From: Opitutia bacterium ISCC 52 | GTDB lineage: Bacteria; Verrucomicrobiota; Verrucomicrobiia; Opitutales; UBA2995 | Direction of reading: 5' to 3' | DNA: 64,000 nucleotides | Assembly (NCBI GenBank): GCA_014529675.2 | Contig: CP076040.1 | Span: forward strand, 1,550,001 to 1,614,000 | Shown here: one piece after another, positions 1,256 through 16,037 of the stretch | Layout: every line of letters starts with the position of its first letter | How positions within the stretch are numbered: position 1 is the first letter of the stretch | The notes under the pieces: model-generated | What the model was told of the DNA's origin: nothing | Seen by the model: the letters and a program-made list of their open reading frames with translations, nothing else | The model's database searches: none | Made by a program: the position numbers and the translations under genes

Positions 1256-1391
1256 GTAGCACAGGCATCTTGCCTGTGTATGTTCCGCAAACTAACGCTT
1301 CCGATGAGCTTTAGTTTGGTCAGGAAATCCAACCCAATCGATTGCGAAACAAAATCCTTGTTCCACTACACAGGCAAGATGCCTGTGCTAC
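1256..1391. repeat. REP-like element with 25-bp perfect inverted arms
   Basis: The left arm at 1256-1280 and the right arm at 1367-1391 are perfect reverse complements over 25 bp. Each arm is also a hairpin by itself: ACAGGCA and TGCCTGT separated by three bases. The 86-base middle holds a weaker AAACTAA/TTTAGTTT pairing. It lies between the truncated propeller gene and the convergent lacI-type gene, whose stop is at 1402, so it may also act as a bidirectional transcript end. The design (a hairpin at each end, ends complementary to each other) matches REP/BIME-like elements moved by RAYT transposases; no transposase is in the window. Confidence 0.75.
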
Positions 1392-1401
1392 ATCCATAAA
1401 T

Positions 1402-2481
1402 CTACCTAATCGTAAACCCTTCGACGAAGTCGCCACGAAGTACTGTCGTTCGTGGTTTAGTCAGCTCACCACGTTCGTTGTTATACAAACGTTCCGACAC
1501 AATGTTAGTTGCTACCTCTGCCATTTCTTCGTGGCATTGGCGATAGCCAGAACAACCATCGGTGCGTGATGACCAGTTCAAAACCATGTAGCCAAATTCA
1601 TCTGGAACTTTGTAACCCAGGCTCGTGAAGTAATCTAAGATTTTGGAGCGAAAGGTGATGATGACATCCGGCTTGTATTGTTTGTGCCATACGTGCATGG
1701 CTTCGTAATCCGGTTTTTCAAACAGTAGCTCGGGTTTATGTATGTGTAAAATGGGTACGCGGTCTTTTTCTTTGATGAGCCTATTTTGATATTCCAGGAA
1801 ACCTGCGTTCCAAAGGTGACCGCCTCTTGTCTCGTTTTCAGAGTCGGTGATGAAGCCTGGGCGTTTGTAGCCGCGCTCGCTTAAGAAATCGAGGATGTCC
1901 TGCATGCACCGAAAATTATCGTAGAATACGCTGGGTATGTTTCCCAAGGGATCGGAGAATCCGATTGAGGCGACTGCAAACGGAGACCAGTCTAGTTTTA
2001 ATGGCGTATCTGAGAATCGCATGGGTGCGAGTACCAGGCCAGAAATTTGACGGTTTAATAGGACTTGTTGAATACGTTCATTCGAATAATAGGCTAAATC
2101 GAATTCCAGAAAATCAAAATCAAAGCCGAGGTCTGAGGCGCGTCGCTTACAGCCTTCATGGAATCGACTGCCGATGTGCCATTCCACGCGTTTGTCTTCA
2201 CGCTGTTCATCATAAAAAGTAGAGAGCAGCCCTATAGTGGGCATGGAGCTTTTCCACTCTTTCGACCTTCGAACCCGCGCCATATTTGCATTAACCAGTG
2301 GATTATTCCGGTAGCCCATTCTCTGGGCTATCTTCTGGATGCGTTCTCGTGTGATGGCCGGTATCCGTGAATTATTTCTCAGTGCAAGTGACACGGTTGC
2401 TTTGCAGACACCAGCGGCTTCGGCTATGTCCGCAAAAGTGGGGCTTTTTTTGGAGCTATTCTGGAGTGATTTCTTGCTCAT
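1402..2481 (-). CDS. LacI-family transcriptional regulator
   Basis: This 359-residue protein has an N-terminal LacI helix-turn-helix (about residues 15-35, 'TFADIAEAAGVCKATVSLAL') and the following helix with hinge ('MGYRNNPLVNANMARVR', about 55-71). A periplasmic-binding-protein-like sugar-sensing core follows. The hinge lacks the usual 'NxxAR.L' spelling but keeps 'NANMARVR', as in many verrucomicrobial members. Typical family length is 330-360. It sits beside a sulfatase and two TonB-dependent receptors, and three copies of a palindrome with central CG, the normal shape of a LacI-family operator, lie at 4184, 4244 and 8035. I infer that it represses those genes until an oligosaccharide or sugar acid binds. 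No operator copy was seen in its own upstream region (2482-2717), so self-regulation is not evident. Confidence 0.92.
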   Translation of the reverse strand: MSKKSLQNSSKKSPTFADIAEAAGVCKATVSLALRNNSRIPAITRERIQKIAQRMGYRNNPLVNANMARVRRSKEWKSSMPTIGLLSTFYDEQREDKRVEWHIGSRFHEGCKRRASDLGFDFDFLEFDLAYYSNERIQQVLLNRQISGLVLAPMRFSDTPLKLDWSPFAVASIGFSDPLGNIPSVFYDNFRCMQDILDFLSERGYKRPGFITDSENETRGGHLWNAGFLEYQNRLIKEKDRVPILHIHKPELLFEKPDYEAMHVWHKQYKPDVIITFRSKILDYFTSLGYKVPDEFGYMVLNWSSRTDGCSGYRQCHEEMAEVATNIVSERLYNNERGELTKPRTTVLRGDFVEGFTIR

Positions 2482-2717: not shown

Positions 2718-4115
2718 TCACATGGGTGCGATTCGTTTAGATCCCACATTAGTGGTGAGGTTTACGTGACTATTGAAACTCTCCAAAATTAATTGGTTCT
2801 TAATGGATTCGTAGTTCGTGTCATCCCATAAATTATTGAATTCCCAGGGATCTGTTTCCAGGTCAAAGAGTTCACCTAATCCATGGTCGTGGTAGACGAC
2901 CAACTTGTAGCGCTCGTTTCGGTGCATGGTAGCAAAGGCTCCACTGCCACCGGTAAAATAAGGATCCAAGGCATCAAAATATTCGCAGCGGGCATGGCTT
3001 CGTATCTGAGCGCCCGTGTCATCGCTTTTTAGATAGGGCATCAAACTCTTTCCCTTGTGATAGTCTGGGATCTCTAATCCAGCTAATTCTAGCAAAGTTG
3101 CTGAGAGGTCCAGGAGTTCTACAAGTCCTGAGCACTGCTTGTTGCTGTTAAATTGATTTGGACAGGAGAAAATAAGCGGAACCTTCACGAGTCCTTCGTA
3201 AAAGCGACACCCTTTGAACATAAGACCATGATCGCCTAATGTTTCGCCGTGATCCGATGTGAAAATGATGACCGTGTTTTCCCGTTGGCCTGTTTCGTCG
3301 AGGGCTTTGAGTATCCGGGCAAACTGATCGTCGATCTGGGCGATCATCGCATAGTATTTAGCCTGAGCTGATTTGGCCTGATGTTCTTCGGGGGATCGAA
3401 CCTCTCCCTGGAAATCTACTTTTTCCAAGGCTTTCTGGTTCTTGATATCGGATTCCTTAAAGTAAGGGCCGGGCATATCTTCCGGATCGAACTGGGCGTC
3501 ATACTCGGCTGGTGGAATGAAGGGTGGGTGAGGATCGTAGACATTGATGTTTAGCATCCATGGCTTTCCATGATCCTGAGAAATATAGTCGATGGCGCAG
3601 TCCGAGGCCCATTTCGCTTGATGGTATTCGGGACGGACGCGTTCTGGTGAATTTCTCATCTCATCCAAACTCTGTCCCTGCTCGCGAACCCAGTCTGCGT
3701 ATTGATGAGCGCCTTCGGGCCAATCATCACGTGGGGCATGGGAGTGTTGCCAGTAAGTGAATCCATCATTCAGTCGCGGTTCAGGCCTTCGGCCAGCGCT
3801 GACCAGGTGGAATTTTCCAATCAAGCCACAGGCATAACCCGCATCCGCAATCAGCTTGGAGATGAGTGGAATATCTTCGGGGAATGTGTCGTTCCCGTTC
3901 CGTGTATTTCTCGTTCGACTCGGATAGAAGCCAGTCATCAGGCTGGCTCGGCTCGGTGTGCAAATGGGGCTTTGGCAATAGGTGTTGGTAAATGAAACGC
4001 CATCTCGAACGAGCTGATCCAAGGTGGGAGTTTTCACATGCACATTTCCTAGTGCGCCGATGGTATCAAAGCGTTGTTGGTCAGTACAGTACCAAAGAAT
4101 ATTTGGGCGTTTCAT
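2718..4115 (-). CDS. S1-family sulfatase, no signal peptide
   Basis: Sulfatases of this family hydrolyse sulfate esters with a formylglycine made from a Cys or Ser. Here C52-T-P-S-R56 is the CxPxR maturation motif. The N-terminal metal-binding start 'PNILWYCTDQQRFDTIG', the 'GLIGKFHL' block and a C-terminal 'SDHGETLGDHGLMFKG' metal site are all present. I chose ATG at 4115 (465 residues) because 'MKRPNILWYCTDQ' matches the family start; an ATG at 4157 would add 14 unconserved residues. There is no signal peptide with either start, so this copy should be cytoplasmic, unlike the other four sulfatases here, and may act on imported oligosaccharides. It diverges from the first receptor gene with two operator-like palindromes in between. 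Confidence 0.93.
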   Translation of the reverse strand: MKRPNILWYCTDQQRFDTIGALGNVHVKTPTLDQLVRDGVSFTNTYCQSPICTPSRASLMTGFYPSRTRNTRNGNDTFPEDIPLISKLIADAGYACGLIGKFHLVSAGRRPEPRLNDGFTYWQHSHAPRDDWPEGAHQYADWVREQGQSLDEMRNSPERVRPEYHQAKWASDCAIDYISQDHGKPWMLNINVYDPHPPFIPPAEYDAQFDPEDMPGPYFKESDIKNQKALEKVDFQGEVRSPEEHQAKSAQAKYYAMIAQIDDQFARILKALDETGQRENTVIIFTSDHGETLGDHGLMFKGCRFYEGLVKVPLIFSCPNQFNSNKQCSGLVELLDLSATLLELAGLEIPDYHKGKSLMPYLKSDDTGAQIRSHARCEYFDALDPYFTGGSGAFATMHRNERYKLVVYHDHGLGELFDLETDPWEFNNLWDDTNYESIKNQLILESFNSHVNLTTNVGSKRIAPM

Positions 4116-4183
4116 TGAAGGGCCATGGGGTGTTTTCAGATCATCACTGTGGATCAAAAGGCCGTATCGAACGATTTAAATGC

Positions 4184-4201
4184 TGCTAAACGCGTTGAAT
4201 G
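4184..4201. promoter_or_regulatory. Degenerate LacI-type operator (site 1)
   Basis: The left half TGCTAAACG is identical to the perfect palindrome at 4244, and the right half is degenerate; 14 of 18 positions match. It lies 68 bases upstream of the sulfatase start at 4115, placing it where it could control the minus-strand gene, 42 bases from the perfect site. Its pairing with site 2 could allow looping. Binding by the neighbouring LacI protein is inferred. Confidence 0.6.
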
Positions 4202-4243
4202 CCTAAGATTTGGATGATAAATTTTAATTGGCAGAATTTATTT

Positions 4244-4261
4244 TGCTAAACGCGTTTAGCA
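4244..4261. promoter_or_regulatory. Perfect LacI-type operator (site 2)
   Basis: TGCTAAACGCGTTTAGCA is a perfect 18-bp palindrome with the central CG step typical of LacI/GalR operators. It ends 134 bases before the ATG of the first TonB-dependent receptor. The same motif in nearly the same position (135 bases) precedes the second receptor, and both copies continue with GATGG. The best candidate regulator is the LacI-family gene at 1402-2481. Confidence 0.8.
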
Positions 4262-4395
4262 GATGGCCTCTTGTGGTTTTCCGTGAGAGAACGATTTTAG
4301 TTAACGAACTTAGAATTAAAGCCCCGCACTACCTCTTAGACGATTTCTATGCAGTTTTCTTAACGCTCCGCGGGGTTAAAAGCAAACTTCTACTT

Positions 4396-7300
4396 ATGAA
4401 AGCAATACACCCAAAAGATTATATTAGAATACTCTTTGTACTCGTTTTGTCCTGCGCTGTTATTAGTCAACCGTTGCTGGCTCAAAATGAAGACGAAGAG
4501 GATGTATACACCTTGAGCCAGTTCCAGATCGATGAATCTGAAGTTCAGGGTTACTTGGCTACCAGTACGCTCGCTGGTACTCGTATCAAGACGGACTTAA
4601 AAGATTTAGGCTCCGCGATTTCAGTGGTGACCGAAGAATTCATGGACGACGTATCGGCCACGGATGCCCAAACGCTCCTGTCCTACACCCTGGGAACGGA
4701 AGTGGGAGGATACCAAGGTAATTTTGCCGGTGGCTCGGAACAGCGACAGTCCCGCATTTACCTGACCGATGAAAGAGTCAATCCCCAACGAAACCAACGG
4801 ATTCGTGGTCTCGGATCCGCTGACTTAACCCGCGGATTCTTCCTCTCCGACATTCCTTTTGACACCTACAATACCGAACGGGTCACCGTCAGTCGTGGCC
4901 CCAATTCTTTGCTCTTTGGTATTGGTAGTCCGGGCGGGGTCATCAACAACGCCACCAAACAAGCCTTGCACGGAGAAGAGTTTGGTGAAATTGGTGTTCG
5001 GCTCGACAATTATGGTAGCTGGCGCCTGAGTTTCGATTATAATAAACCTCTGATTGAAGATAAGCTGTCTCTCAGGGTCGCCATGCTTGAAGAGAGTATG
5101 GAATTTAAACAACAACCTGCCTACGAGGATCAGTCTCGCATCTATGCGGCCCTGGACTGGATTATTGCTGAAGGTAACGGCAATCTGACGCGTTTCCGGG
5201 TCAATTATGAAGACGGCGAACAGGAAGGTTCTCCCCTGGAAGTCATTCCACCTACCGTGGCCTACCATAACTGGTTTGAGCCGATTTCTTCGAATATTTC
5301 TCAATACACTGGTGTGGAGGCCGATCCGTGGGTGATTTCGCCCAGCGAAGGGGGCACGTGGCAGTTTCAGGCTCTTCATGATAATCCCCTGGTAACCCAA
5401 AATGATGAATCCAAGGTATTTACCAATGTGCACCCGACCATTTTCCGTCACGTGGGAATCAGTTACACCACCCGCGGGGCAACCGTTCCAGATGTAGGTG
5501 GCGGTCTTGGCCTGGGCGGCTATAACGGCTTGATTCCGTGGAGCCCGAGTCGAGACACACTGGCCAGCACTGGCCTAGTGGGCACCCCGGTTGCTCAGGG
5601 CCTCCCGGATGACACACCGGTGGGCGGTTTTCGGGACTGGCATACGGTCAGCCCTTATGCTGAGGGCTATGCGACGGGTTTCGTGGCTCCCACCCTGCAG
5701 AATCGCGATGTGTTCGATTTCTACAACCACATGTACAGTAATGGACTGGACAATGTTGTCCGTGAATTTGACGCCTTAAATATCGCACTGGAACAGAGCT
5801 TCTTTGATGGGAAGGCCGGTATTGAAGTCGCTTTTGACGAACAATCTTATTTTACCCATGAGAATTTCCCTTTTTCAGGTGGTAACGGTACCAGTTCAGC
5901 CGGACCCTACGATATTTATGTGCACAACTCAGTTTACCTGACCAATGGACAGCTCAATCCAAATCTTGGCCGGGCCTACACTCGGGTTCGAGCTCCACAA
6001 CAGTTTTATAATTGGAGTGATCGGGAAACCTTTCGTATCACCGCCTTTGGCGAGGTCGATCTATCAGAAAACGACGGTTTCTTGGGTTGGTTGGGACGTC
6101 ACCGCTGGACCGGACTCTACAACGATTACTCCCTGGATACGTTTATGCGGAACACAAAGGATCAAGGGGATAGTAATGAGATCGATATGAATTCCACTCA
6201 GCAGGCCGGCTCTCAAGGACTAAGACACGGCCGGCGAAATGTTAACATTATGGCCTACACCAGTGAGCAGTCATTGATTGGCGTCCAGTCCATGGATGAT
6301 GTGCGACTTCACCCCATCGATTTTGTAATGTATGAACCAGGATTAAGCTATAATTACGCCTGGGTGGATACAACGGGAGCAGGAGACCGCATGATTCACA
6401 CCAACGAAGTGTTTATTAACCGCATGTTATTTAATGAAAACATCAACCAGACCAACATTGAAGCCAAGGCACTTGCCTGGCAGGGTTACTTCCTGGACGA
6501 CACCATCGTGGCCATGTATGGATACCGCGAAGACGATACGGAAAGTTTTGCCAGAAACCCGGCATCTGAAGCGAGCGCCAGTCAATATACCTCTATAGGG
6601 GAATATAATCCAGAATTCACAAAACTCTCTTCTACTCCAGCACTGGTGGAAGACGGCGACACCCAAACCTGGAGTGTCGTAGGCCGCCTGCCCGAAAATC
6701 TGTTAGGGGAGATGCCCTTTGATTTTCAAGTCCACTGGGCCACATCGGAGAATTTCAATCCGATCGGACTGCGCAATAATGCGTTGGGTGAAACCATTGG
6801 TCAACCCACTGGCACTACCGAAGAATATGGCTTCCAGTTCAGTTCGAAAGACAACCGATATGTGATTAAATTAAACTGGTTTGAAACCCAACTAGCGAAC
6901 GTCAACGCCGGGGTTAATTTCAACTTGGCTAATCACGTGTTCAACCGAATCAACGAACACCGCGACGGTGAGCAAAGTGGCATCGATTGGAATGAGCACT
7001 TGATACGCCTTCCCGGAGGCGCAGATCCGGCGGGACACCCTATTCAAACCTACGATCAATGGTATAGCGCCACTTTGAATTCCATACCTTCAGTATTGAG
7101 AGACATTGTCAGTCCCCAGCAGGTGGATAACGACGGAGATGGGATGTGGGATGAATATCAATTTGATTCCATTCCCAACCTTCGTTCAACCCGGGATCAA
7201 AAGGCCGAAGGTTTTGAAATCGAATTTGTGGCCAATCCAACCGCGTCCTGGCGTTTGATGGCCAACATCGGACAGCAAGAGACGGTATTTTCTAATACCG

Positions 7301-7866
7301 CTCCCGTCATGGCTCAACTTACACAGGAATACGTTGCCGCTATCGAGGCCAGCCGTATGGATGAACTCCAAGAGGATGGAGCCTTCCAACGGGATGAAGA
7401 GACTTACAGCATTAATCTCGGAAGAGGTATCAGAGGTCCGATTGTTCAAGCCAGAGCTCTTGACGGAACCGTATCCAACGAACAGCGCGAATGGCGCTTT
7501 ACCGGAGTAAGCACCTATCAATTCCGGGAAGGAGCACTAGAAGGCTGGGGAGTTGGTGGTGCCGTCCGCTGGGAAGACGAAGCAGCAACCGGCTACGTAT
7601 TCAGTGTGGATCCCGAGACCGGTGCCCCGCTTCCGGATGTCAATCGTCCCTATTACGATGATGGACTGTTCAGTGGAGATCTTTGGTTTACCTACAACAC
7701 CATGATTTGGGATGATAAGGTAGACTGGCGCCTACAGTTGAACATCCGCAACTTGGTCGGTGAGAGTGGAAACATTCCGGTCAGAACCAATCCGGACGGA
7801 CAAGTGGCTGTTATTCGTATCCCCAATCCTCGCACGGTTTATCTTTCAAGCACCTTTAAGTTCTAG
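4396..7866 (+). CDS. TonB-dependent receptor 1
   Basis: This 1156-residue outer-membrane receptor should import a large ligand using TonB energy. ATG at 4396 gives a signal peptide ('YIRILFVLVLSCAVISQPLLAQ'); earlier in-frame codons run through the operator region and are rejected. A TonB-box-like 'EDVYTLSQFQI' is followed by the plug ('STLAGTRIKTDLKDLGSAISVVTEEFMDD', later 'RVTVSRGPNSLLFGIGSPGGVINNATKQ'), then a 22-strand-type barrel ending in an aromatic terminus ('PNPRTVYLSSTFKF'). There is no carboxypeptidase-like N-domain of the SusC type. It is a close paralogue of the next gene, including its leader and the AAAnCAAACTnCTACTTATG start context. The barrel contains a D911-N-D-G-D-G-M-W-D loop resembling thrombospondin-3/EF-type calcium sites. 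Location next to sulfatases suggests uptake of a sulfated glycan; the ligand is not known. Confidence 0.93.
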   Translation: MKAIHPKDYIRILFVLVLSCAVISQPLLAQNEDEEDVYTLSQFQIDESEVQGYLATSTLAGTRIKTDLKDLGSAISVVTEEFMDDVSATDAQTLLSYTLGTEVGGYQGNFAGGSEQRQSRIYLTDERVNPQRNQRIRGLGSADLTRGFFLSDIPFDTYNTERVTVSRGPNSLLFGIGSPGGVINNATKQALHGEEFGEIGVRLDNYGSWRLSFDYNKPLIEDKLSLRVAMLEESMEFKQQPAYEDQSRIYAALDWIIAEGNGNLTRFRVNYEDGEQEGSPLEVIPPTVAYHNWFEPISSNISQYTGVEADPWVISPSEGGTWQFQALHDNPLVTQNDESKVFTNVHPTIFRHVGISYTTRGATVPDVGGGLGLGGYNGLIPWSPSRDTLASTGLVGTPVAQGLPDDTPVGGFRDWHTVSPYAEGYATGFVAPTLQNRDVFDFYNHMYSNGLDNVVREFDALNIALEQSFFDGKAGIEVAFDEQSYFTHENFPFSGGNGTSSAGPYDIYVHNSVYLTNGQLNPNLGRAYTRVRAPQQFYNWSDRETFRITAFGEVDLSENDGFLGWLGRHRWTGLYNDYSLDTFMRNTKDQGDSNEIDMNSTQQAGSQGLRHGRRNVNIMAYTSEQSLIGVQSMDDVRLHPIDFVMYEPGLSYNYAWVDTTGAGDRMIHTNEVFINRMLFNENINQTNIEAKALAWQGYFLDDTIVAMYGYREDDTESFARNPASEASASQYTSIGEYNPEFTKLSSTPALVEDGDTQTWSVVGRLPENLLGEMPFDFQVHWATSENFNPIGLRNNALGETIGQPTGTTEEYGFQFSSKDNRYVIKLNWFETQLANVNAGVNFNLANHVFNRINEHRDGEQSGIDWNEHLIRLPGGADPAGHPIQTYDQWYSATLNSIPSVLRDIVSPQQVDNDGDGMWDEYQFDSIPNLRSTRDQKAEGFEIEFVANPTASWRLMANIGQQETVFSNTAPVMAQLTQEYVAAIEASRMDELQEDGAFQRDEETYSINLGRGIRGPIVQARALDGTVSNEQREWRFTGVSTYQFREGALEGWGVGGAVRWEDEAATGYVFSVDPETGAPLPDVNRPYYDDGLFSGDLWFTYNTMIWDDKVDWRLQLNIRNLVGESGNIPVRTNPDGQVAVIRIPNPRTVYLSSTFKF

Positions 7867-7891
7867 TCTCGTTTATAGTCTATTAAGTTAA

Positions 7892-7934
7892 TTTAGCTCC
7901 GGGTATTTTATAATATCCGGAGCTAAATGTTTTT
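7892..7934 (+). terminator. Rho-independent terminator of receptor 1
   Basis: Arms TTTAGCTCCGG (7892-7902) and CCGGAGCTAAA (7917-7927) form an 11-bp perfect stem, and TGTTTTT follows directly. It lies 25 bases after the stop at 7866 and separates the first receptor from the second, which has its own operator and leader. Confidence 0.85.
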
Positions 7935-8034
7935 AGGAAATGAGGCAGGATACTCTCAAAATGCTCCTGTGGAACCATGGTTCTGTGTGTATTGTATAAT
8001 CCTTCCTTGGTAGGTCGATACGGATAGAATCAGT

Positions 8035-8052
8035 TGTTAAACGTGTTTAGCA
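8035..8052. promoter_or_regulatory. LacI-type operator (site 3)
   Basis: TGTTAAACGTGTTTAGCA matches the perfect palindrome at 4244 in 16 of 18 positions and is followed by the same GATGG. It ends 135 bases before the ATG of the second receptor. The stretch from 7867 to 8187 otherwise holds the upstream terminator and the receptor leader; I saw no gene in it. Confidence 0.75.
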
Positions 8053-8187
8053 GATGGTGCCTTGAGATTCGCTCCGAACGTTAGATTTTAGAAAGTGATC
8101 ATCCCCAATTCTACCTCGAATTTCTACAACAAAGCTTACCCCGACCTCTCAAACAAGGTCCGACGTACCCAAAACAAACTCCTACTT

Positions 8188-11100
8188 ATGAAAACGATAC
8201 TCCATAAAGCGAGCAAAGCGCTTGCCTATGTACTGCCGCTTTTTTGCGTGATCGTGATGCCCTTTGCATCCGCTCAAGAAGACGATGATGTCTACAATCT
8301 GAGTCTGTTCCAGATTGATGAAGAAGAAACTCAGGGTTACTTGGCTACCAGTACGCTCGCTGGAACGCGGATTAAAACCGACCTGAAAGATCTAGGTGCT
8401 GCTATCTCGGTGGTTACCTCTGAATTCATGGATGATATATCCGCTACCGATGCTCAAACGCTCTTGTCTTATACAAGTAATACGGAAGTCGGCGGCTTTC
8501 AGGGAAACTTTAGTGGAGCCCAGGCCAGCAACCGAAGTCGTTTTGTTGATAATGACTCGAGAACTAATCCCCAACGTAACCAACGTATTCGTGGGCTAGG
8601 TGCCGCTGATTTGACTCGAGGATATTTTCTGACGGATATCGCTTTTGATAGTTACAACACTGAGCGGGTAACTGTCAGCCGTGGACCCAATTCACTACTT
8701 TTTGGTATTGGTAGTCCTGGTGGTGTGATCAATAACGCGACAAAGCAAGCCATTCACAATAACAACTTTGGTGAACTGGGAATCCGTTTTGATAACTACG
8801 GCAGTTGGCGCGCAGAAGTTGATTATAACAAAGTAATAGTCGAAGATCGGGTCTCCTTGCGCGTTGCACTTTTAGAGGAAAGCCAAGAATACAAGCAGGA
8901 GCCAGCGCACGAGGACCAACATCGCGTATACGCTGCACTGAATGTCGTCTTATCTGAGAATGAAGCGAGCGACTTTCTGGATGCCACCATTTTTAGAGCC
9001 AATTACGAAAGAGGTGAGCGCTCAGGTTCACCGGTGGAGGTTATTCCTCCATCTGTTGCATACCATGGTTGGTTCGAACCTACTCCCTCTTCGATTTCAC
9101 AGTATACAGGTTCAGTGCCCGCCGCAAACGCTCGTGCTCCTGGCGATGGAGGAACCTGGGAGTTTCAAGCTCTCCACGATGATCCACTTCATATTGGTTC
9201 TGTGGGAAGTAGTGAAGCCGCCGTTGGTACCAATGTTCACCCCAGTAATTTTCGCCACAATGCGATTTATTACCCCGGAAAAGGCGCTCCTGCGAATGTA
9301 GGTATTCCTGGATCAAACATTCAAGGTTACACGTCCTTGATCCCATGGAGAGCTAGCCAGGGTGATACCATAGACAGCACAGGATTAGCAGGTAGTCCGT
9401 TGGCTGCTGGATTACCAGGCGACACTGGGGTTAATGATTTTCGGGAATTTGCTACCAATAGTCCTTATGCCGAATCTTATGCTATCGGTTTTGCGGTTCC
9501 TACCTTAAGGAACACAGATGTATTCGATTACCGAAACAAGATGTATACCAACGGATTGGACCTGGCGATTCGTGATTTTGATGTAATGAATTTAGCATTG
9601 GAACAAAATTTCTTTAACAATAATGCCGGTATCGAAATTGCTTACGACGAACAAAGTTACGATACTTATCAGGACTTCATCTTTTCGGGAGGACTCCAGC
9701 ATAGTAGTCGTGGAGAGTATGATATTTATGTCATGAATTCCACCCACTTGATCAATGGTCAGCCTAACCCAAATCTGGGTCGTGCATTTACCGCTAACGC
9801 GGGAACTCAACAACAATTTGAGCAAATTGATCGTGAAACATTTCGGGTCACGGCTTTTGCCAAACTTGATTTAACAGAGAACGACGGGTTTCTTGGAATG
9901 TTGGGGCGACACACTTTTACCGGCCTCTACAACGACCATACCAAGGACCGTCATTGGTGGACCAACAGAGACGCGACGGGCAGTGATGAGTTCTCTATGA
10001 ATTCAGCTATGCAACACCAACTGGGTGGAGGTCGCAGAAATACCAATCTCACAGTATTTACCAGTGACTCTCTTATTGGAGTTCAGTCCATGGATGATGT
10101 TCGCCTTTATCCCATTGATTTTCCAAGACCACAAGTGGGAGATACCTTTGAGTATTTATATGTGGATACCACTCCCGCGAGTAATGCAAATAGCAACGGT
10201 ATTAGAGACCGCAGTCTTAAAACCGGTACTATTTATACGACTAGCTACTTGCAGGACGAAAACATCAGCCAAAACAGCATCGAAGCGAAAGCTTTCGCTT
10301 GGCAGGGTTACTTCTTGGACGATCACATTGTAGGTCTTTATGGCTGGCGCGAAGATGACACCAAGAGCTTTGCCCGTGCCAATGCAACTGAAGTTGGGTT
10401 TTCGCAGAGACTGCCAGACCTGACGCACAATCCGGATTACGCACGACTTTCCAATACGCCTTCTTTGGAAGAAACCGGGGATACAACCACTTGGAGTGTA
10501 GTCGGTCGTTATCCAGAAGTCTTATTTGGAGAGCTTCCATTTAATCTCCAAGTGCATTATGCAGAATCCGAGAATTTCAACCCGATTGGCCTTCGTAATA
10601 GTCCGCTGGGAGTTCCTATCGGTCAGCCTACTGGTACGACTGAGGAATATGGATTTCAAATTTCCTCGGATGACAACAAGTATGCGATCAAGTTTAACTG
10701 GTTCGAAACGAGATTAGCGAATTCTAATACAGATCCTGCACTTACAACAAACTTCGCGAACCATGTGGTTGGTCGAATCAATGCGTACCGCGATGCTCAG
10801 CAAGGAGGATTCACTTGGGCAGACGAGCTAACTTGGGTAGAAGGTCCTCTAGAAAGTTATCCGCATCAGAGCTTCGAAGAGTTTTATGCCGCTTCATTGG
10901 CTACCATTCCTTCCGAACTCGCTTCTGTTGCTAATCCTAGACCTGTTGATGATGACGGAGACGGGGAGTGGGATCGTTATGAAACAGACAGCATCCCCAA
11001 CGTTCAGTCTACTCAGGATCGTGTCGCAGAAGGATTCGAAGTTGAGCTCGTAGCTAATTTCACTCCGAACTGGCGCATGATGATGAATATCAGTCAGCAG

Positions 11101-11688
11101 GAAACGGTTCAGTCGAATACCGCCACGATTTTGGCAGGGCTTGCAGAAGATTATGTGTCTGCTGTTCAATCAGCTCGACTCGGAGAAACCGAACAAGATG
11201 GATCCTTGGGAGCTGACTCAGAAGCCTATGAAGTTTCACTGTTGGGCGGATTGCTCGCGCCTATCCGCGGTGCCAAAGCTTTGGATAATACCGCTTCGAA
11301 CGAACAACGTGAGTGGCGTATTACCGGTGTAACCAATTATGAGTTCACTGAAGGTCGCCTGGATGGATTCGGTATTGGTGGAGCCTTCCGTTGGGAAGAT
11401 GAAGCAGCTACCGGTTATGTATTTCAACTCGAGCCCGAAAGCGGAGTGCCTGTTCCTGACGTAACACGCCCATATTTTGATGACGGTCTGTTTAGTGGGG
11501 ACCTGTGGTTCACTTATGGACAACGTATCTGGGATGACAAAATTGATTGGAGCATCCGGCTCAATATCAGAAACCTGGTGGGTGAAAGTGATGACATTCC
11601 AGTGAAAACTAATCCCGATGGTCAAGTGGCTGTAATTCGAATTCCGAATCCACGCACTGTCTACCTTTCTAATACTTTTAAGTTCTAA
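8188..11688 (+). CDS. TonB-dependent receptor 2
   Basis: This 1166-residue receptor is the tandem paralogue of the upstream one. It has the same 'YNLSLFQIDEEETQGYLATSTLAGTRIKTDLKDLG' region (read as two consecutive blocks), the same plug motif around 'VTVSRGPNSLLFGIGSPGGVINN' and a near-identical C-terminus ('NPRTVYLSNTFKF'). ATG at 8188 gives the signal peptide 'ALAYVLPLFCVIVMPFASAQ'. A V-D921-D-D-G-D-G-E-W-D loop corresponds to the calcium-site-like loop of receptor 1. The surface loops differ more than the plug and the last strands, as expected if the two copies recognise related but different glycans. Its 3' end is 6 bases from the next start, which suggests an operon, but a terminator-like palindrome lies just inside the next gene. 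Confidence 0.93.
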   Translation: MKTILHKASKALAYVLPLFCVIVMPFASAQEDDDVYNLSLFQIDEEETQGYLATSTLAGTRIKTDLKDLGAAISVVTSEFMDDISATDAQTLLSYTSNTEVGGFQGNFSGAQASNRSRFVDNDSRTNPQRNQRIRGLGAADLTRGYFLTDIAFDSYNTERVTVSRGPNSLLFGIGSPGGVINNATKQAIHNNNFGELGIRFDNYGSWRAEVDYNKVIVEDRVSLRVALLEESQEYKQEPAHEDQHRVYAALNVVLSENEASDFLDATIFRANYERGERSGSPVEVIPPSVAYHGWFEPTPSSISQYTGSVPAANARAPGDGGTWEFQALHDDPLHIGSVGSSEAAVGTNVHPSNFRHNAIYYPGKGAPANVGIPGSNIQGYTSLIPWRASQGDTIDSTGLAGSPLAAGLPGDTGVNDFREFATNSPYAESYAIGFAVPTLRNTDVFDYRNKMYTNGLDLAIRDFDVMNLALEQNFFNNNAGIEIAYDEQSYDTYQDFIFSGGLQHSSRGEYDIYVMNSTHLINGQPNPNLGRAFTANAGTQQQFEQIDRETFRVTAFAKLDLTENDGFLGMLGRHTFTGLYNDHTKDRHWWTNRDATGSDEFSMNSAMQHQLGGGRRNTNLTVFTSDSLIGVQSMDDVRLYPIDFPRPQVGDTFEYLYVDTTPASNANSNGIRDRSLKTGTIYTTSYLQDENISQNSIEAKAFAWQGYFLDDHIVGLYGWREDDTKSFARANATEVGFSQRLPDLTHNPDYARLSNTPSLEETGDTTTWSVVGRYPEVLFGELPFNLQVHYAESENFNPIGLRNSPLGVPIGQPTGTTEEYGFQISSDDNKYAIKFNWFETRLANSNTDPALTTNFANHVVGRINAYRDAQQGGFTWADELTWVEGPLESYPHQSFEEFYAASLATIPSELASVANPRPVDDDGDGEWDRYETDSIPNVQSTQDRVAEGFEVELVANFTPNWRMMMNISQQETVQSNTATILAGLAEDYVSAVQSARLGETEQDGSLGADSEAYEVSLLGGLLAPIRGAKALDNTASNEQREWRITGVTNYEFTEGRLDGFGIGGAFRWEDEAATGYVFQLEPESGVPVPDVTRPYFDDGLFSGDLWFTYGQRIWDDKIDWSIRLNIRNLVGESDDIPVKTNPDGQVAVIRIPNPRTVYLSNTFKF

Positions 11689-11694
11689 GTTAAA

Positions 11695-13569
11695 TTGTAC
11701 ATAAAGCGTTTGTATTGTAGTTCTATATGCTTTGCCGTCACCGCAATTGCGGTGACGGTTTTGCATGTTATCAGTTCTCTGTCCGCAGCTGAGGTACCTG
11801 CCTTTCAGGTAGATGAACAAAAAGAGCCGCCTACTTGGGCACTCTATGAGCGGCAGCTGATCGATACGCTCAATCAAGCCGGTATCGAGTTTTATGATAC
11901 TTATGTATTGGAAGATGGCACTTTAGAGTGGAAGGAACGTTATGAGGGTGGGATGAATTCGTCCGACGATGCCTATGAAGCGTTTCGCGGGTATTCATTA
12001 TTAACCGCGCTCGGTGGCTCTAAAGAGATCGACCGGCGACACCGCTACGTGTGGGAAGGTATTACCAAGCAGTTCGCACGGTACGGGCAAATCTACCGGG
12101 AGTTTGATTCGAACTGGGATTGGATGCACCACGGAGAGGGATATATTTCACTTTATCCGATGGGGATGGTGGAGCCTGACGATAGTAAATTCATCGATCG
12201 ATCGGTGAGGTTCGCTGCGATGTATACGGGTGAGGATCCTGAATCTCCCAATTGGGATCCTGAGCATAAAATCATTCGGTCTGTCATGAACGGGAGCAGA
12301 GGCCCAAAAATGGAGTGGGTGAAACGCGACTGGATTCCTACCAATGCCAATCTCACTTACTACCCGTTACCCTTCTTTGATATCCCAGGCGTGGACGCTT
12401 CAACAGCTTGGATCAATGATCACCCGGATAACGATCAATTTGCACTGTTGGTTAAAGCGATGAGCGATCGCATGGCTAAAGGTGATGTCCCCATCAACCT
12501 AGCGGCGACCGCTTTAATCGCCAATGCCTACCTTTATACGGGTGAGGAAAAATACGTTCAATGGGTCAAGGATTATGTGGGCACATGGGAACGCTTAACC
12601 AAAGAGAATGGTGGCATTACTCCCGACAATGTGGGGCTCTCTGGAAAGATCGGTGAATACACCGGTTACTGGTGGGGTGGCTACTATGGTTGGGTATGGC
12701 CGCGCGGTGGAACGGATGTTGTTTACGCGACCTTAACTTCTGCCAAGGTTGCTACACTGATGACCGGGGACACAAGCTATGGAGAATTGCCCCGAAGCCA
12801 GATGGCGGTCATGCGCAAAGAAGGTAAACTGGAAAACGGCAGGTATGTAATGCCGATTCGCCATGACCAACGGGGTTGGTATAACTTCTCTTCTGAAATA
12901 CCTTATCCCTATGTGAATCTTTGGTACCTTTATCATGACGACGATGATTGGAATAACATCGAGCGTTTGGCAGAGGCAGAGCTAAAACGAAGCGGCCACA
13001 TCAGTGACCCTGATTTGGGCTGGGCTTATTTCGTGCGCGGCAGGAATCCGGATTATCCCGTTGAAGCATTCCAAAAGGATTTTCGCTTTGTGGCAGATAG
13101 GATGAACACCATCCGGGAGGAAAACGGTGATCCGGAAACCTTTGTTGATAATAAATGGATTAATCACGATCCCGTTCGCATGGACAATTTGGTCCGCTTA
13201 ACGATTGGCGGAATGCCCATTCATAAACGGGGTGAGATGCTCCATGCCCAGGTTCGATATTTTGATCCGAAAAACAAACGGGCAGGGCTCCCTCAGGATG
13301 TAGCGGTTCTTGTATCACGTATCGAGGCTGATTGGGTTCAGATTGACATCAGCAATCTCAATCAGTTCGAACGCAGGCACTTGATGATTCAGGGAGGCAC
13401 CTACGGGGAGCATCAGATCAAATCGATTCAGATAGGTGATGGAGCCAAGGAAGTGATCGATGGGCAGGCGTTGACTCTCGACTTGGGACCCGGAGCAGGT
13501 GTTTCAATTAAGCTTTCTTTGGACCGTTATAAGAACAAACCCAGTTACGATTTTCCATGGAAGGACTAA
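11695..13569 (+). CDS. Secreted protein of unknown function
   Basis: I do not recognise a named family. The frame opens at a TTG (11695); no ATG is available before the mature region. The TTG gives a signal peptide 'YIKRLYCSSICFAVTAIAV...' ending near 'SSLSAAEVPA'. The 624-residue product is rich in Trp, Tyr and His motifs ('YEGGMNSSDDAYEAF', 'DSNWDWMHHGEGY', 'GYWWGGYYGWVWPRGG'). Helical segments alternate with conserved aromatic turns, which suggests an alpha/alpha-toroid of the kind found in many glycoside hydrolases and polysaccharide lyases, and the last 120 residues look like a beta-sandwich. Position right after a TonB receptor fits a periplasmic glycan-active enzyme or binding protein. 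Coding status is sure; function is inferred only from context. Confidence 0.82.
   Translation: MYIKRLYCSSICFAVTAIAVTVLHVISSLSAAEVPAFQVDEQKEPPTWALYERQLIDTLNQAGIEFYDTYVLEDGTLEWKERYEGGMNSSDDAYEAFRGYSLLTALGGSKEIDRRHRYVWEGITKQFARYGQIYREFDSNWDWMHHGEGYISLYPMGMVEPDDSKFIDRSVRFAAMYTGEDPESPNWDPEHKIIRSVMNGSRGPKMEWVKRDWIPTNANLTYYPLPFFDIPGVDASTAWINDHPDNDQFALLVKAMSDRMAKGDVPINLAATALIANAYLYTGEEKYVQWVKDYVGTWERLTKENGGITPDNVGLSGKIGEYTGYWWGGYYGWVWPRGGTDVVYATLTSAKVATLMTGDTSYGELPRSQMAVMRKEGKLENGRYVMPIRHDQRGWYNFSSEIPYPYVNLWYLYHDDDDWNNIERLAEAELKRSGHISDPDLGWAYFVRGRNPDYPVEAFQKDFRFVADRMNTIREENGDPETFVDNKWINHDPVRMDNLVRLTIGGMPIHKRGEMLHAQVRYFDPKNKRAGLPQDVAVLVSRIEADWVQIDISNLNQFERRHLMIQGGTYGEHQIKSIQIGDGAKEVIDGQALTLDLGPGAGVSIKLSLDRYKNKPSYDFPWKD
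11735..11762 (+). terminator. Terminator-like 24-bp palindrome inside a signal-peptide coding region
   Basis: Bases 11735-11758 form a perfect palindrome: 10-bp arms CCGTCACCGC/GCGGTGACGG around AATT, followed by TTTT. It starts 46 bases after the receptor stop, where a terminator would be expected, yet it encodes 'AVTAIAVTV' in the hydrophobic core of the next gene's signal peptide. It may attenuate read-through from the receptor gene into the downstream gene. Confidence 0.65.
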
Positions 13570-13578
13570 GAATTCCAT

Positions 13579-13644
13579 TCGGCAGCAAGCTACCTCCTAC
13601 TCCTCGATTCGGCTATTTGAATGTAGGAGGTAGCTTGCTGCCGA
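13579..13644. repeat. REP-like inverted repeat, 22-bp arms
   Basis: Arms 13579-13600 and 13623-13644 are perfect reverse complements around a 22-base loop that is itself GC/TA mixed. The right arm contains the imperfect hairpin GGTAGCTTGCTGCC. It begins ten bases after the stop at 13569 and could end the transcript, but there is no U-tract and its design resembles the other palindromic elements in this window. Confidence 0.7.
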
Positions 13645-13685
13645 TCAGATCAAATCTGTGGTTAAAGTCGTTTGACAAAAGAACC

Positions 13686-14687
13686 ATGCCAGAAAGTAGC
13701 TATTGGAAATTGTTTCTCCTGTTATTTTCATCGATTCTGATGAGTAACAACTTATCTGCGCAAATGGGCTCTCCCGGGCACGGAGAAACCCAAGCCATAG
13801 GTCTGCACCCGACCAATCCAATGATTTTGTACGCAGGAGCTGCCAAAGGCTTGTGTAAATCAACCATCGGAGGAAAAGACAACTGGCCGACCGTAGGACT
13901 CGATACTTATTCTCCTCGAGCGATAGTCGTCGGTCAGAAGAATCCTTCCATCGTTTATGCAGGCACTCATAAAGTGGGAGTCTACAAGTCTTCCGATGGG
14001 GGCGATTCTTGGGACGAAGTGAATTTGGGAATTACTTACCCTGAAATTCGAGCGATGCTCATCCACCCCAAGAATGATAATATTGTCTATGCTGGGACCG
14101 ACGGAGGAGGGGTCTTTAAAACGCTTAATGGCGGCGATTCCTGGAGAGAGATCAATCATGGTCTAATCGACAAGGTCATTCGTTCGATGGCTATGGATCC
14201 TCGTGACTCCGATGTCATCTATGCAGGCACCTGGCATGGAGTATATAAAACAACGGACGGTGGAAAAAATTGGTCGGCTGATCCTGAAGGGCTCTTCGAT
14301 GTCGATGTGCGAGCGATAGCGCTCGATCCATCGAACCCGGATATCGTTTATGCAGGTACTCAGCCTCGCGGTGTTTATCGATCCGAAGATGGTGGGAAGA
14401 CCTGGGCGAGAGGAAAAAATCCTCTGATGGAGCATATTGAATCGATGGCCATCGATCCAGCAAATCCAGGGCATGTCTATGTAGGTACGAGAGCAGGTGT
14501 GTTTGTAAGTACCGATAAAGCGGATACGTTTGTGACAGCCGGACTCCGTTGGTCCAACATGGCTTGGACGCTAATTTTTGATGCGAAAACAGACCCACCG
14601 ACCTTGTATTATGGAGGAGTGGGAGGAGTTCTTAAGACGACGACTCGCGGCGTCCAGTGGGATGTGACAGGGCCTATTAGACCTTAA
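13686..14687 (+). CDS. Secreted Asp-box (BNR/sortilin-type) beta-propeller protein
   Basis: ATG at 13686 gives a 333-residue protein with a clear signal peptide ('YWKLFLLLFSSILMSNNLSAQ'); an upstream in-frame ATG at 13557 would read through the inverted repeat and is rejected. Repeats of about 45 residues each combine 'DPxNPxIVYAGT' with an Asp box: 'KSSDGGDSWDEV', 'KTLNGGDSWREI', 'KTTDGGKNWSAD', 'RSEDGGKTWARG'. This is the YCF48/sortilin/BNR-type propeller fold found in sialidase-like and glycan-associated proteins. No sialidase Arg triad or catalytic Asp can be picked out, so a binding or scaffold role is as likely as an enzyme. It stands at the head of the transporter and catabolic genes that follow at short spacing. 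Confidence 0.85.
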   Translation: MPESSYWKLFLLLFSSILMSNNLSAQMGSPGHGETQAIGLHPTNPMILYAGAAKGLCKSTIGGKDNWPTVGLDTYSPRAIVVGQKNPSIVYAGTHKVGVYKSSDGGDSWDEVNLGITYPEIRAMLIHPKNDNIVYAGTDGGGVFKTLNGGDSWREINHGLIDKVIRSMAMDPRDSDVIYAGTWHGVYKTTDGGKNWSADPEGLFDVDVRAIALDPSNPDIVYAGTQPRGVYRSEDGGKTWARGKNPLMEHIESMAIDPANPGHVYVGTRAGVFVSTDKADTFVTAGLRWSNMAWTLIFDAKTDPPTLYYGGVGGVLKTTTRGVQWDVTGPIRP

Positions 14688-14705: not shown

Positions 14706-16037
14706 ATGACTGACGTTCAACGAAACGCTATTAAGCACACCCTCATTGCTGGACTCATCCTGGTCTCGATCTTTCAGTATGTGAAGTTAGGATCTGGCTT
14801 AGGAGAAGAATATCCCAGAAAACCCATACGCGTCGTGGTACCCTTTCAACCCGGCGGAGGATCGGACACCTTTGTTCGGATTGTTCAAAAGGCTATCAAT
14901 GATGATCAACTCATGCCTCAACCTTTGGTAGTGGTCAACAAGCCGGGTGGGGGAACGTCGATTGGAAGCAGCTATGTGAAAGACGCGCGCGCCGATGGTT
15001 ATGCAGTGCTCTGTTTGCACGAAGCCTTGATGGTGGCAAAGTCTAACGGACAATCACCGAACGGTCCCGACGATTATGAAGTAGCTGCTGCCACCGGGGA
15101 ATTTGGTGTAGTGGTACTTGTTTCCAATGAATCTCCTTACCAAAACCTGGGAGATCTAATGGAAGCCGCCAAAGCTCAACCTGAGACCCTGAATTTTGGC
15201 ATCAATTTCAATACCCCGACGCATTTTTCAGCTATTATGCTAGAGAATACGCTACCGGGAGCTCGCTTCCGGTTTGTCGCAACAGGTGGAGGTGCGCATC
15301 GATTGGCCGGAGTCATGGGAGGACATCTCGACGTCATCATTTTGTCTATCGGGGAGTATGTCCGATTTAAGGAGAACGGATTGAAGGCCATCGCTTATCT
15401 TGGGGAAGATCGTCTAGATTCTATTCCCGACATTCCAACCAGTGCGGAGTTGGGCTTTCCTGTTTTCAGTGCGAATCTTCACTATTGGTGGTTTCCTAAG
15501 GGTACAGATGCATCGATCGTAAATTTCTTCGCTGATGTCATGGGCAAGGTGATGGCCTCCGATTACGTGCTTCAACGTACGGAGGAGCTGCAGATTCTTC
15601 CACGAATCATCGTGGGAGATGAGCTGAGTCAACGCATTGACGATCGCATGGAAGCGTTTGGAAAAATCAAACCCGAGCATCGAATTGAACTGCCTGACTT
15701 TGAAGTTTGGACGATGGGATTTGTGTTATTGTTCGTATTGCTTGTATCGGTAAGCCACTTCCGAAACAAGCAAACCAAAGTCGATACGACATCTGAGATA
15801 CGATTGCGTTACGATTTCGCTTTTGGGACCTTAGCGATGACGATTGTTTACGTATTGATCATGGGACTGGGGATAGTTCCATTTATTTGGGCGACCATCA
15901 TCTTTGTAATGGTTGCTGGGCTATTTTTGACAGGCATGGATAAGCGTAAGTGGGTTTCCATCGTAGAAGTCGCTCTGCTCATGTCCTTTGGACTGCATTA
16001 TGTCTTCACTCAATTGTTCACCATCGATCTGCCCTGA
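14706..16037 (+). CDS. TctC-TctB fusion: TTT-family solute receptor joined to small membrane subunit
   Basis: Residues about 35-325 are a TctC/Bug-type extracytoplasmic solute-binding domain ('YPRKPIRVVVPFQPGGGSDTFVRI', 'VVNKPGGGTSIGSSYVKDA', 'LADVMGxV'-like end). Residues about 335-443 form a TctB-like domain with four hydrophobic segments. In usual tripartite tricarboxylate transporters these are two genes. The N-terminal hydrophobic stretch (residues 11-30) lacks a clear cleavage site and may be an anchor, so the receptor would be tethered at both ends. The next gene is the large TctA subunit, completing the transporter. It probably carries the sugar acid consumed by the dehydratase downstream. 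443 residues against about 320 plus 150 for separate partners. Confidence 0.88.
   Translation: MTDVQRNAIKHTLIAGLILVSIFQYVKLGSGLGEEYPRKPIRVVVPFQPGGGSDTFVRIVQKAINDDQLMPQPLVVVNKPGGGTSIGSSYVKDARADGYAVLCLHEALMVAKSNGQSPNGPDDYEVAAATGEFGVVVLVSNESPYQNLGDLMEAAKAQPETLNFGINFNTPTHFSAIMLENTLPGARFRFVATGGGAHRLAGVMGGHLDVIILSIGEYVRFKENGLKAIAYLGEDRLDSIPDIPTSAELGFPVFSANLHYWWFPKGTDASIVNFFADVMGKVMASDYVLQRTEELQILPRIIVGDELSQRIDDRMEAFGKIKPEHRIELPDFEVWTMGFVLLFVLLVSVSHFRNKQTKVDTTSEIRLRYDFAFGTLAMTIVYVLIMGLGIVPFIWATIIFVMVAGLFLTGMDKRKWVSIVEVALLMSFGLHYVFTQLFTIDLP

What the first reader, a model, noticed from the sequence alone, without database searches (positions are those of the whole stretch)
4184..8052. Three copies of one palindrome define a small LacI regulon
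TGCTAAACGCGTTTAGCA (4244, perfect), a 16/18 copy at 8035 and a 14/18 copy at 4184 lie upstream of the two TonB receptors and the divergent sulfatase. The two receptor copies are 134 and 135 bases from their ATG and share GATGG after the palindrome. The adjacent LacI-family gene is the natural regulator. Seen: sequence and spacing. Established: LacI/GalR operators are CG-centred palindromes. Inferred: the pairing.
Basis: partly seen in the sequence, partly recalled or inferred. Interest (0 to 1): 0.75.

Follow-up and report, generated by a model that had tools for sequence, protein, structure and literature searches.

The report
Operators of a local LacI-family regulator
Three copies of one 18-base palindrome look like binding sites that control two nutrient-uptake receptors and a sulfatase together, almost certainly through the neighbouring LacI-type protein, which sits a fixed distance in front of each promoter and may therefore activate rather than repress.

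Summary
The palindromes at 4244, 8035 and 4184 are real, at the stated coordinates and spacings, and far above chance. Comparison strongly supports the pairing with the adjacent LacI-family gene (1402-2481). In 373 genomes of the order, the 16-base core occurs in all 7 that carry an intact close orthologue of this LacI; elsewhere it occurs once, inside a coding sequence. A same-genus genome without this LacI, and one with a LacI pseudogene, keep the receptor or sulfatase but lack the site. In this genome the motif is confined to this locus, so the 'regulon' is local.

Two points change the interpretation. First, the dyad is GC, not CG; a sister LacI clade uses TGAAACATGTTTCA, with the same AAAC-N2-GTTT geometry and an AT dyad. 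Second, exactly 8 bp beyond the operator, on sides facing a gene, lies a -35-like TTG/TCG, with the best -10-like signal 16-17 bp further on. This holds for both operator classes. The dyad therefore sits near -52, close to positions from which LacI-family CcpA activates. I favour a locus-specific activator (about 55%) over an upstream repressor (about 35%). No binding or expression data exist.

The parts
1402..2481 (-). LacI-family regulator gene, the proposed binder
   Evidence: Pfam LacI HTH, E 2.2e-12; clade profile aligns to PurR over query 15-354; orthologue present in every genome that has the motif in a promoter
2718..4115 (-). Sulfatase, divergent target; lacI lies downstream on the same strand and may be co-transcribed
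   Evidence: Pfam Sulfatase, E 1.8e-47; first ATG at 4115; next to lacI in most relatives
4172..4175 (-). -35-like ATCG of the sulfatase promoter, 8 bp from operator 4184
   Evidence: same offset as TTCG/ATCG/TTTG on sulfatase sides in relatives
4184..4201 (-). Sulfatase-side operator, CATTCAACGCGTTTAGCA read on the - strand (14/18)
   Evidence: conserved in close relative G007; proximal half and 8-bp element kept
4244..4261 (+). Receptor 1 operator, TGCTAAACGCGTTTAGCA (perfect)
4270..4273 (+). -35-like CTTG of the receptor 1 promoter, 8 bp after the operator
   Evidence: TTG at this offset in 16 of 17 sites, at any other offset at most 2
4293..4298 (+). Weak -10-like GATTTT of receptor 1, 16-bp spacer
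   Evidence: -10-like score peaks at spacer 16-17 over 30 promoters
4396..7866 (+). TonB-dependent receptor 1, target
   Evidence: Pfam Plug, E 8e-9
8035..8052 (+). Receptor 2 operator, TGTTAAACGTGTTTAGCA (16/18)
8061..8064 (+). -35-like CTTG of the receptor 2 promoter, 8 bp after the operator
8084..8089 (+). Weak -10-like GATTTT of receptor 2, 16-bp spacer
8188..11688 (+). TonB-dependent receptor 2, target
   Evidence: Pfam Plug, E 7.9e-8
11695..13569 (+). Conserved protein without a Pfam or NCBIfam match, probably co-transcribed with receptor 2
   Evidence: no family; next to the receptor in relatives

Best explanation
The palindromes are operators of the LacI-family protein encoded at 1402-2481. 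A dimer binds a TAAAC-N2-GTTTA core and sits at a fixed place just upstream of weak sigma-70-type promoters (8 bp from the -35, dyad near -52). One operator type thereby coordinates two TonB-dependent receptors (sites 4244 and 8035) and the divergent sulfatase (site 4184), with lacI possibly in the sulfatase transcript. From the strict spacing and the poor -35/-10 elements, the bound protein most likely helps RNA polymerase (activation), probably in response to a ligand derived from the imported sulfated glycan. Shown by sequence: the sites, their conservation, their co-occurrence with this LacI, the fixed offset. Inferred: binding (about 90%), sign of regulation (activation about 55%), ligand.
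For: Core motif in all 7 of 373 order genomes with an intact close LacI orthologue and otherwise once, in a coding sequence. Five loci not used to define the motif each carry one copy upstream of the sulfatase. Co-loss in G003 (no LacI orthologue) and G243 (LacI with five stops) although receptor or sulfatase remain. TTG/TCG exactly 8 bp away on gene-facing sides, xTxG in 32 of 35 against 5 of 23 on other sides. -10-like signal best at spacer 16-17 of 88 offsets. Same architecture with a different operator sequence in the sister LacI clade. CcpA, a LacI-family member, activates from site centres 21 or 31 bp upstream of the -35 (PMC2329647); here about 19 bp to the first base of the -35 hexamer, 21 to its centre.
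Against: Most LacI-family proteins repress. No expression or binding data. A sulfatase stays intact where LacI is a pseudogene, which loss of an activator would not favour. -35 and -10 are inferred from sequence only. Some sister-clade loci (L180) show no AAAC-N2-GTTT site, and a distant lineage (L183) has the palindrome without the 8-bp element. Which sides count as gene-facing was my judgement.
Confidence: 0.55

Rival explanations
1. Same LacI protein and same operators, but it represses from the upstream position (blocking alpha-CTD or UP-element contacts, or looping between sites) and is released by a glycan-derived inducer.
For: Family default. A cre site upstream of a promoter can repress, as for the levanase operon (PMC4591507). 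Paired sites 60 bp apart here and 73-74 bp apart in G004 would allow looping. The sulfatase survives where LacI is broken.
Against: Operators lie wholly upstream of the inferred -35 at one invariant distance in two operator classes, with poor core promoters; occlusion would tolerate and favour overlapping positions.
Confidence: 0.35
2. The sites are bound by another transcription factor encoded elsewhere, and the LacI gene is only a neighbour.
For: Seven further LacI-family genes exist in this genome; no direct binding data.
Against: Presence and absence follow this LacI across families and are lost with it. Two LacI clades go with two related operator sequences. Candidate operators of three paralogues are different.
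Confidence: 0.07
3. The similarity is a by-product of receptor duplication, or the palindrome acts as an RNA hairpin in a leader.
For: The receptors are about 61% identical tandem duplicates and share other upstream DNA near the ATG.
Against: In an eight-sequence upstream alignment the palindrome is the longest run of invariant columns while flanks diverge. It also precedes unrelated genes: PhoD-like, symporter, other sulfatases. The would-be loop CGCG is among the best conserved parts and position 3 breaks pairing in some copies.
Confidence: 0.03

Closest known systems
Local LacI-family sugar regulons reconstructed by comparative genomics (PMC4052901)
   Same: A local regulator next to its targets, an even 18-bp palindrome upstream of uptake and catabolic genes, sites mostly within 140 bp of the start codon.
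   Different: The centre is GC, not CG (1173 of 1251 even motifs in that survey have CG); the text does not mention Verrucomicrobia.
CcpA acting as activator (ackA-type cre sites; PMC2329647, PMC4591507)
   Same: LacI-family dimer site upstream of the -35; reported activating centres at -21 or -31 from the -35 are close to the distance found here.
   Different: CcpA is a global regulator with HPr-P and a CG-centred cre; this is a single-locus regulator with a GC centre. Activation is not shown here.
EbgR-like LacI-family regulators LacR, GalR, RafR of Lactobacillus (PMC2329647)
   Same: Loss of the hinge alanine/leucine coincides with absence of the central CG. Here the aligned lever position is N or Q, not leucine, and the centre is GC or AT.
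   Different: Another clade; the palindrome stays even; the EbgR-like insertion before helix 3 was not examined; paralogues here do not show a clean correlation.

Membership tests
LacI/GalR family (protein) | N-terminal LacI-type helix-turn-helix | tested here: met
   PF00356, 47 bits against cut-off 27
LacI/GalR family (protein) | C-terminal periplasmic-binding-protein-like effector domain | tested here: met
   no Pfam hit for it at 1e-3, but the clade profile aligns to PurR chains over query 15-354, E about 5e-6
LacI/GalR family (protein) | Hinge-helix leucine that intercalates at the operator centre | tested here: not met
   N in the window's clade, Q in the sister clade at the aligned position; alignment read by eye
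LacI-family operator | Even palindrome upstream of carbohydrate-uptake genes | tested here: met
   18-bp palindromes
LacI-family operator | Central CG pair (typical, not universal) | tested here: not met
   centre GC here, AT in the sister clade; about 6% of even motifs in the survey also differ or are degenerate
LacI-family operator | Specific binding by the named protein | not testable with these tools
   only co-occurrence and co-loss
CcpA-like upstream activation | Site centre at a fixed activating distance upstream of the -35 | tested here: inconclusive
   fixed distance found, but the -35 is inferred, not mapped
CcpA-like upstream activation | Transcription depends on the bound protein | not testable with these tools
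   needs expression data

The most novel reading that the evidence does not exclude
A clade of Opitutales LacI-family proteins works as dedicated activators of glycan-uptake loci. They lack the hinge leucine, bind GC- or AT-centred AAAC-N2-GTTT palindromes, and dock at one invariant distance from the -35, sometimes serving two divergent promoters from a single dyad.
Probability: 0.4. Interest if true: 0.55.

Novelty: new variant of a known kind. Interest (0 to 1): 0.42.

Why it matters
It assigns an operator and a target set to a LacI regulator in a bacterial order for which I found no described LacI operator. It gives a position rule (operator, 8 bp, TTG/TCG) that can help find promoters and regulated genes in uncultured glycan degraders. 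It also makes a testable case that a LacI clade with an altered hinge may activate rather than repress.

Tried and rejected
Further regulon members in the genome with the motif alone or with the composite operator plus TTG: no exact promoter hits outside the locus. Whether leucine-bearing paralogues have CG-centred operators: candidate palindromes were found upstream of three paralogues (GTCAACNGTTGAC, TTTGAAACAGTTCAAA, TTTACTGTCAAGTAAA), none CG-centred, so the link between lever residue and operator centre is not established within these genomes. Distant LacI relatives showed no common AAAC-N2-GTTT signal except one lineage (L183: palindrome directly upstream of its own lacI, without the 8-bp element). 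The sister motif is not clearly enriched across the order over reversed-pattern controls. Literature searches combining Verrucomicrobia, LacI and TonB returned nothing. RNA-hairpin and duplication-artefact readings were rejected on the conservation pattern.

Full report
Observation. Two hits with up to 3 mismatches in 64 kb compare with 0.02 expected from shuffles. In the whole 4.8-Mb genome only one more such hit exists, inside a dehydrogenase-like gene. The receptor spacings (134 and 135) are right. The third copy is degenerate in its distal half.

Neighbours. 1402-2481 is a LacI-family protein by its helix-turn-helix, 2718-4115 a sulfatase, and 4396-7866 and 8188-11688 TonB-dependent receptors. 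The block continues with a conserved protein without a Pfam match (11695-13569), a BNR/sortilin-type protein and a tripartite tricarboxylate transporter, then an enolase-superfamily enzyme, an RraA-like protein and more sulfatases. This looks like a locus for uptake and breakdown of a sulfated glycan; the substrate is not identified.

Does the motif belong to this LacI? Orthologues with 74-93% identity occur in four of the five other genomes of the genus held here. All four have the motif upstream of receptor orthologues or of other cluster genes. Additional targets in relatives are a PhoD-like protein, a third receptor, a sodium:solute symporter and another sulfatase. A scan with the LacI alignment gave loci that had not been used to define the motif. 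Five of them (L125-L129) contain the sulfatase, and each carries one (near-)perfect copy upstream of it; in L126-L129 a receptor lies divergently on the other side. Across 373 genomes of the order, GNTAAACGYGTTTAGC is present in all 7 that carry an intact close LacI orthologue and otherwise once, within a coding sequence. By hand I get a Fisher p of about 4e-14, not corrected for phylogeny; two of the seven (G235, G323) belong to another family. Two natural losses point the same way. G003 has no close LacI orthologue, keeps a 63% receptor and a 63% sulfatase, and has no site. G243 has a LacI reading frame with five stops next to an intact 76% sulfatase, and no recognisable site there.

A second operator class. 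LacI proteins of the sister clade (45-48% identity) lack this motif. Most of their loci carry TGAAACATGTTTCA-like palindromes upstream of a receptor or of the gene next to lacI. Both classes have AAAC-N2-GTTT: in the sister loci gap 2 gives 10 hits, other gaps at most 4, the reversed control 2. In a published survey 1173 of 1251 even LacI-family palindromes are CG-centred (PMC4052901). The residue aligned with the PurR/LacI hinge leucine is N or Q in these clades (read by eye). A correlation between loss of hinge Ala/Leu and loss of the central CG has been published for EbgR-like regulators (PMC2329647). I could not confirm such a correlation among paralogues here.

A fixed distance to the promoter. 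Exactly 8 bp after the operator comes NTTG on receptor sides and TTCG, ATCG or TTTG on sulfatase sides. TTG occurs at that offset in 16 of 17 sites and at no other offset more than twice. Sides that face a gene have xTxG in 32 of 35 cases, other sides in 5 of 23. The rows are related, so these counts are not independent events. The rule also holds for the sister operator class. A -10-like signal is strongest 16-17 bp after this element, the best of 88 offsets tested. I read the element as a -35, which puts the operator dyad near -52. In relatives one dyad often serves two divergent promoters. In this window the operator is duplicated: 4244 for receptor 1 and 4184 for the sulfatase, each with its own 8-bp-spaced element.

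Mechanism. Shown: sites, conservation, co-occurrence, spacing. Inferred: binding by this LacI (about 90%), position upstream of rather than within the promoter (about 75%), activation (about 55%) against upstream repression (about 35%). Strict spacing combined with poor -35 and -10 elements fits help to RNA polymerase. CcpA activates from site centres 21 or 31 bp upstream of the -35 (PMC2329647); here the distance is about 19 to the first base of the -35 hexamer and 21 to its centre. Against activation stand the family's usual mode and the survival of the sulfatase where LacI is broken. Because lacI lies downstream of the sulfatase on the same strand, feedback through site 4184 is possible.

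Verdict. A well-supported local LacI regulon with an unusual operator centre and an activator-like position: a useful, moderately interesting variant rather than a new kind of system.

Noticed in passing
window 1259-1393: A short inverted-repeat element (CACAGGCATCTTGCCTGTG and its complement) lies between a truncated beta-propeller-like gene end and lacI; similar copies appear elsewhere in this genome and in G007 (L195, L196, L202). It looks like a REP/MITE-type interspersed repeat.
   Followed up: no
window 11695-14687: Against the close relative G007, the unknown protein (56% identity) and the BNR/sortilin-type protein (73%) are far more diverged than their neighbours (receptors 97-98%, transporter 89-97%), which suggests local replacement or fast evolution.
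   Followed up: no
window 14706-16037: One reading frame matches both TctC and TctB, that is, a fusion of two tripartite-transporter components.
   Followed up: no
L137 9992-11043: The sister-clade LacI in record OX638348.1 is split into two overlapping reading frames (a frameshift, real or assembly) while its AAAC-N2-GTTT sites remain.
   Followed up: no
L181 9194-10219 (G243): A LacI pseudogene with five in-frame stops next to an intact sulfatase and no operator: a natural loss experiment.
   Followed up: partly
L193 9172, L199 9785, L195 9724: Candidate operators of three paralogous LacI genes of this genome, palindromes just upstream of each gene and conserved in relatives.
   Followed up: partly
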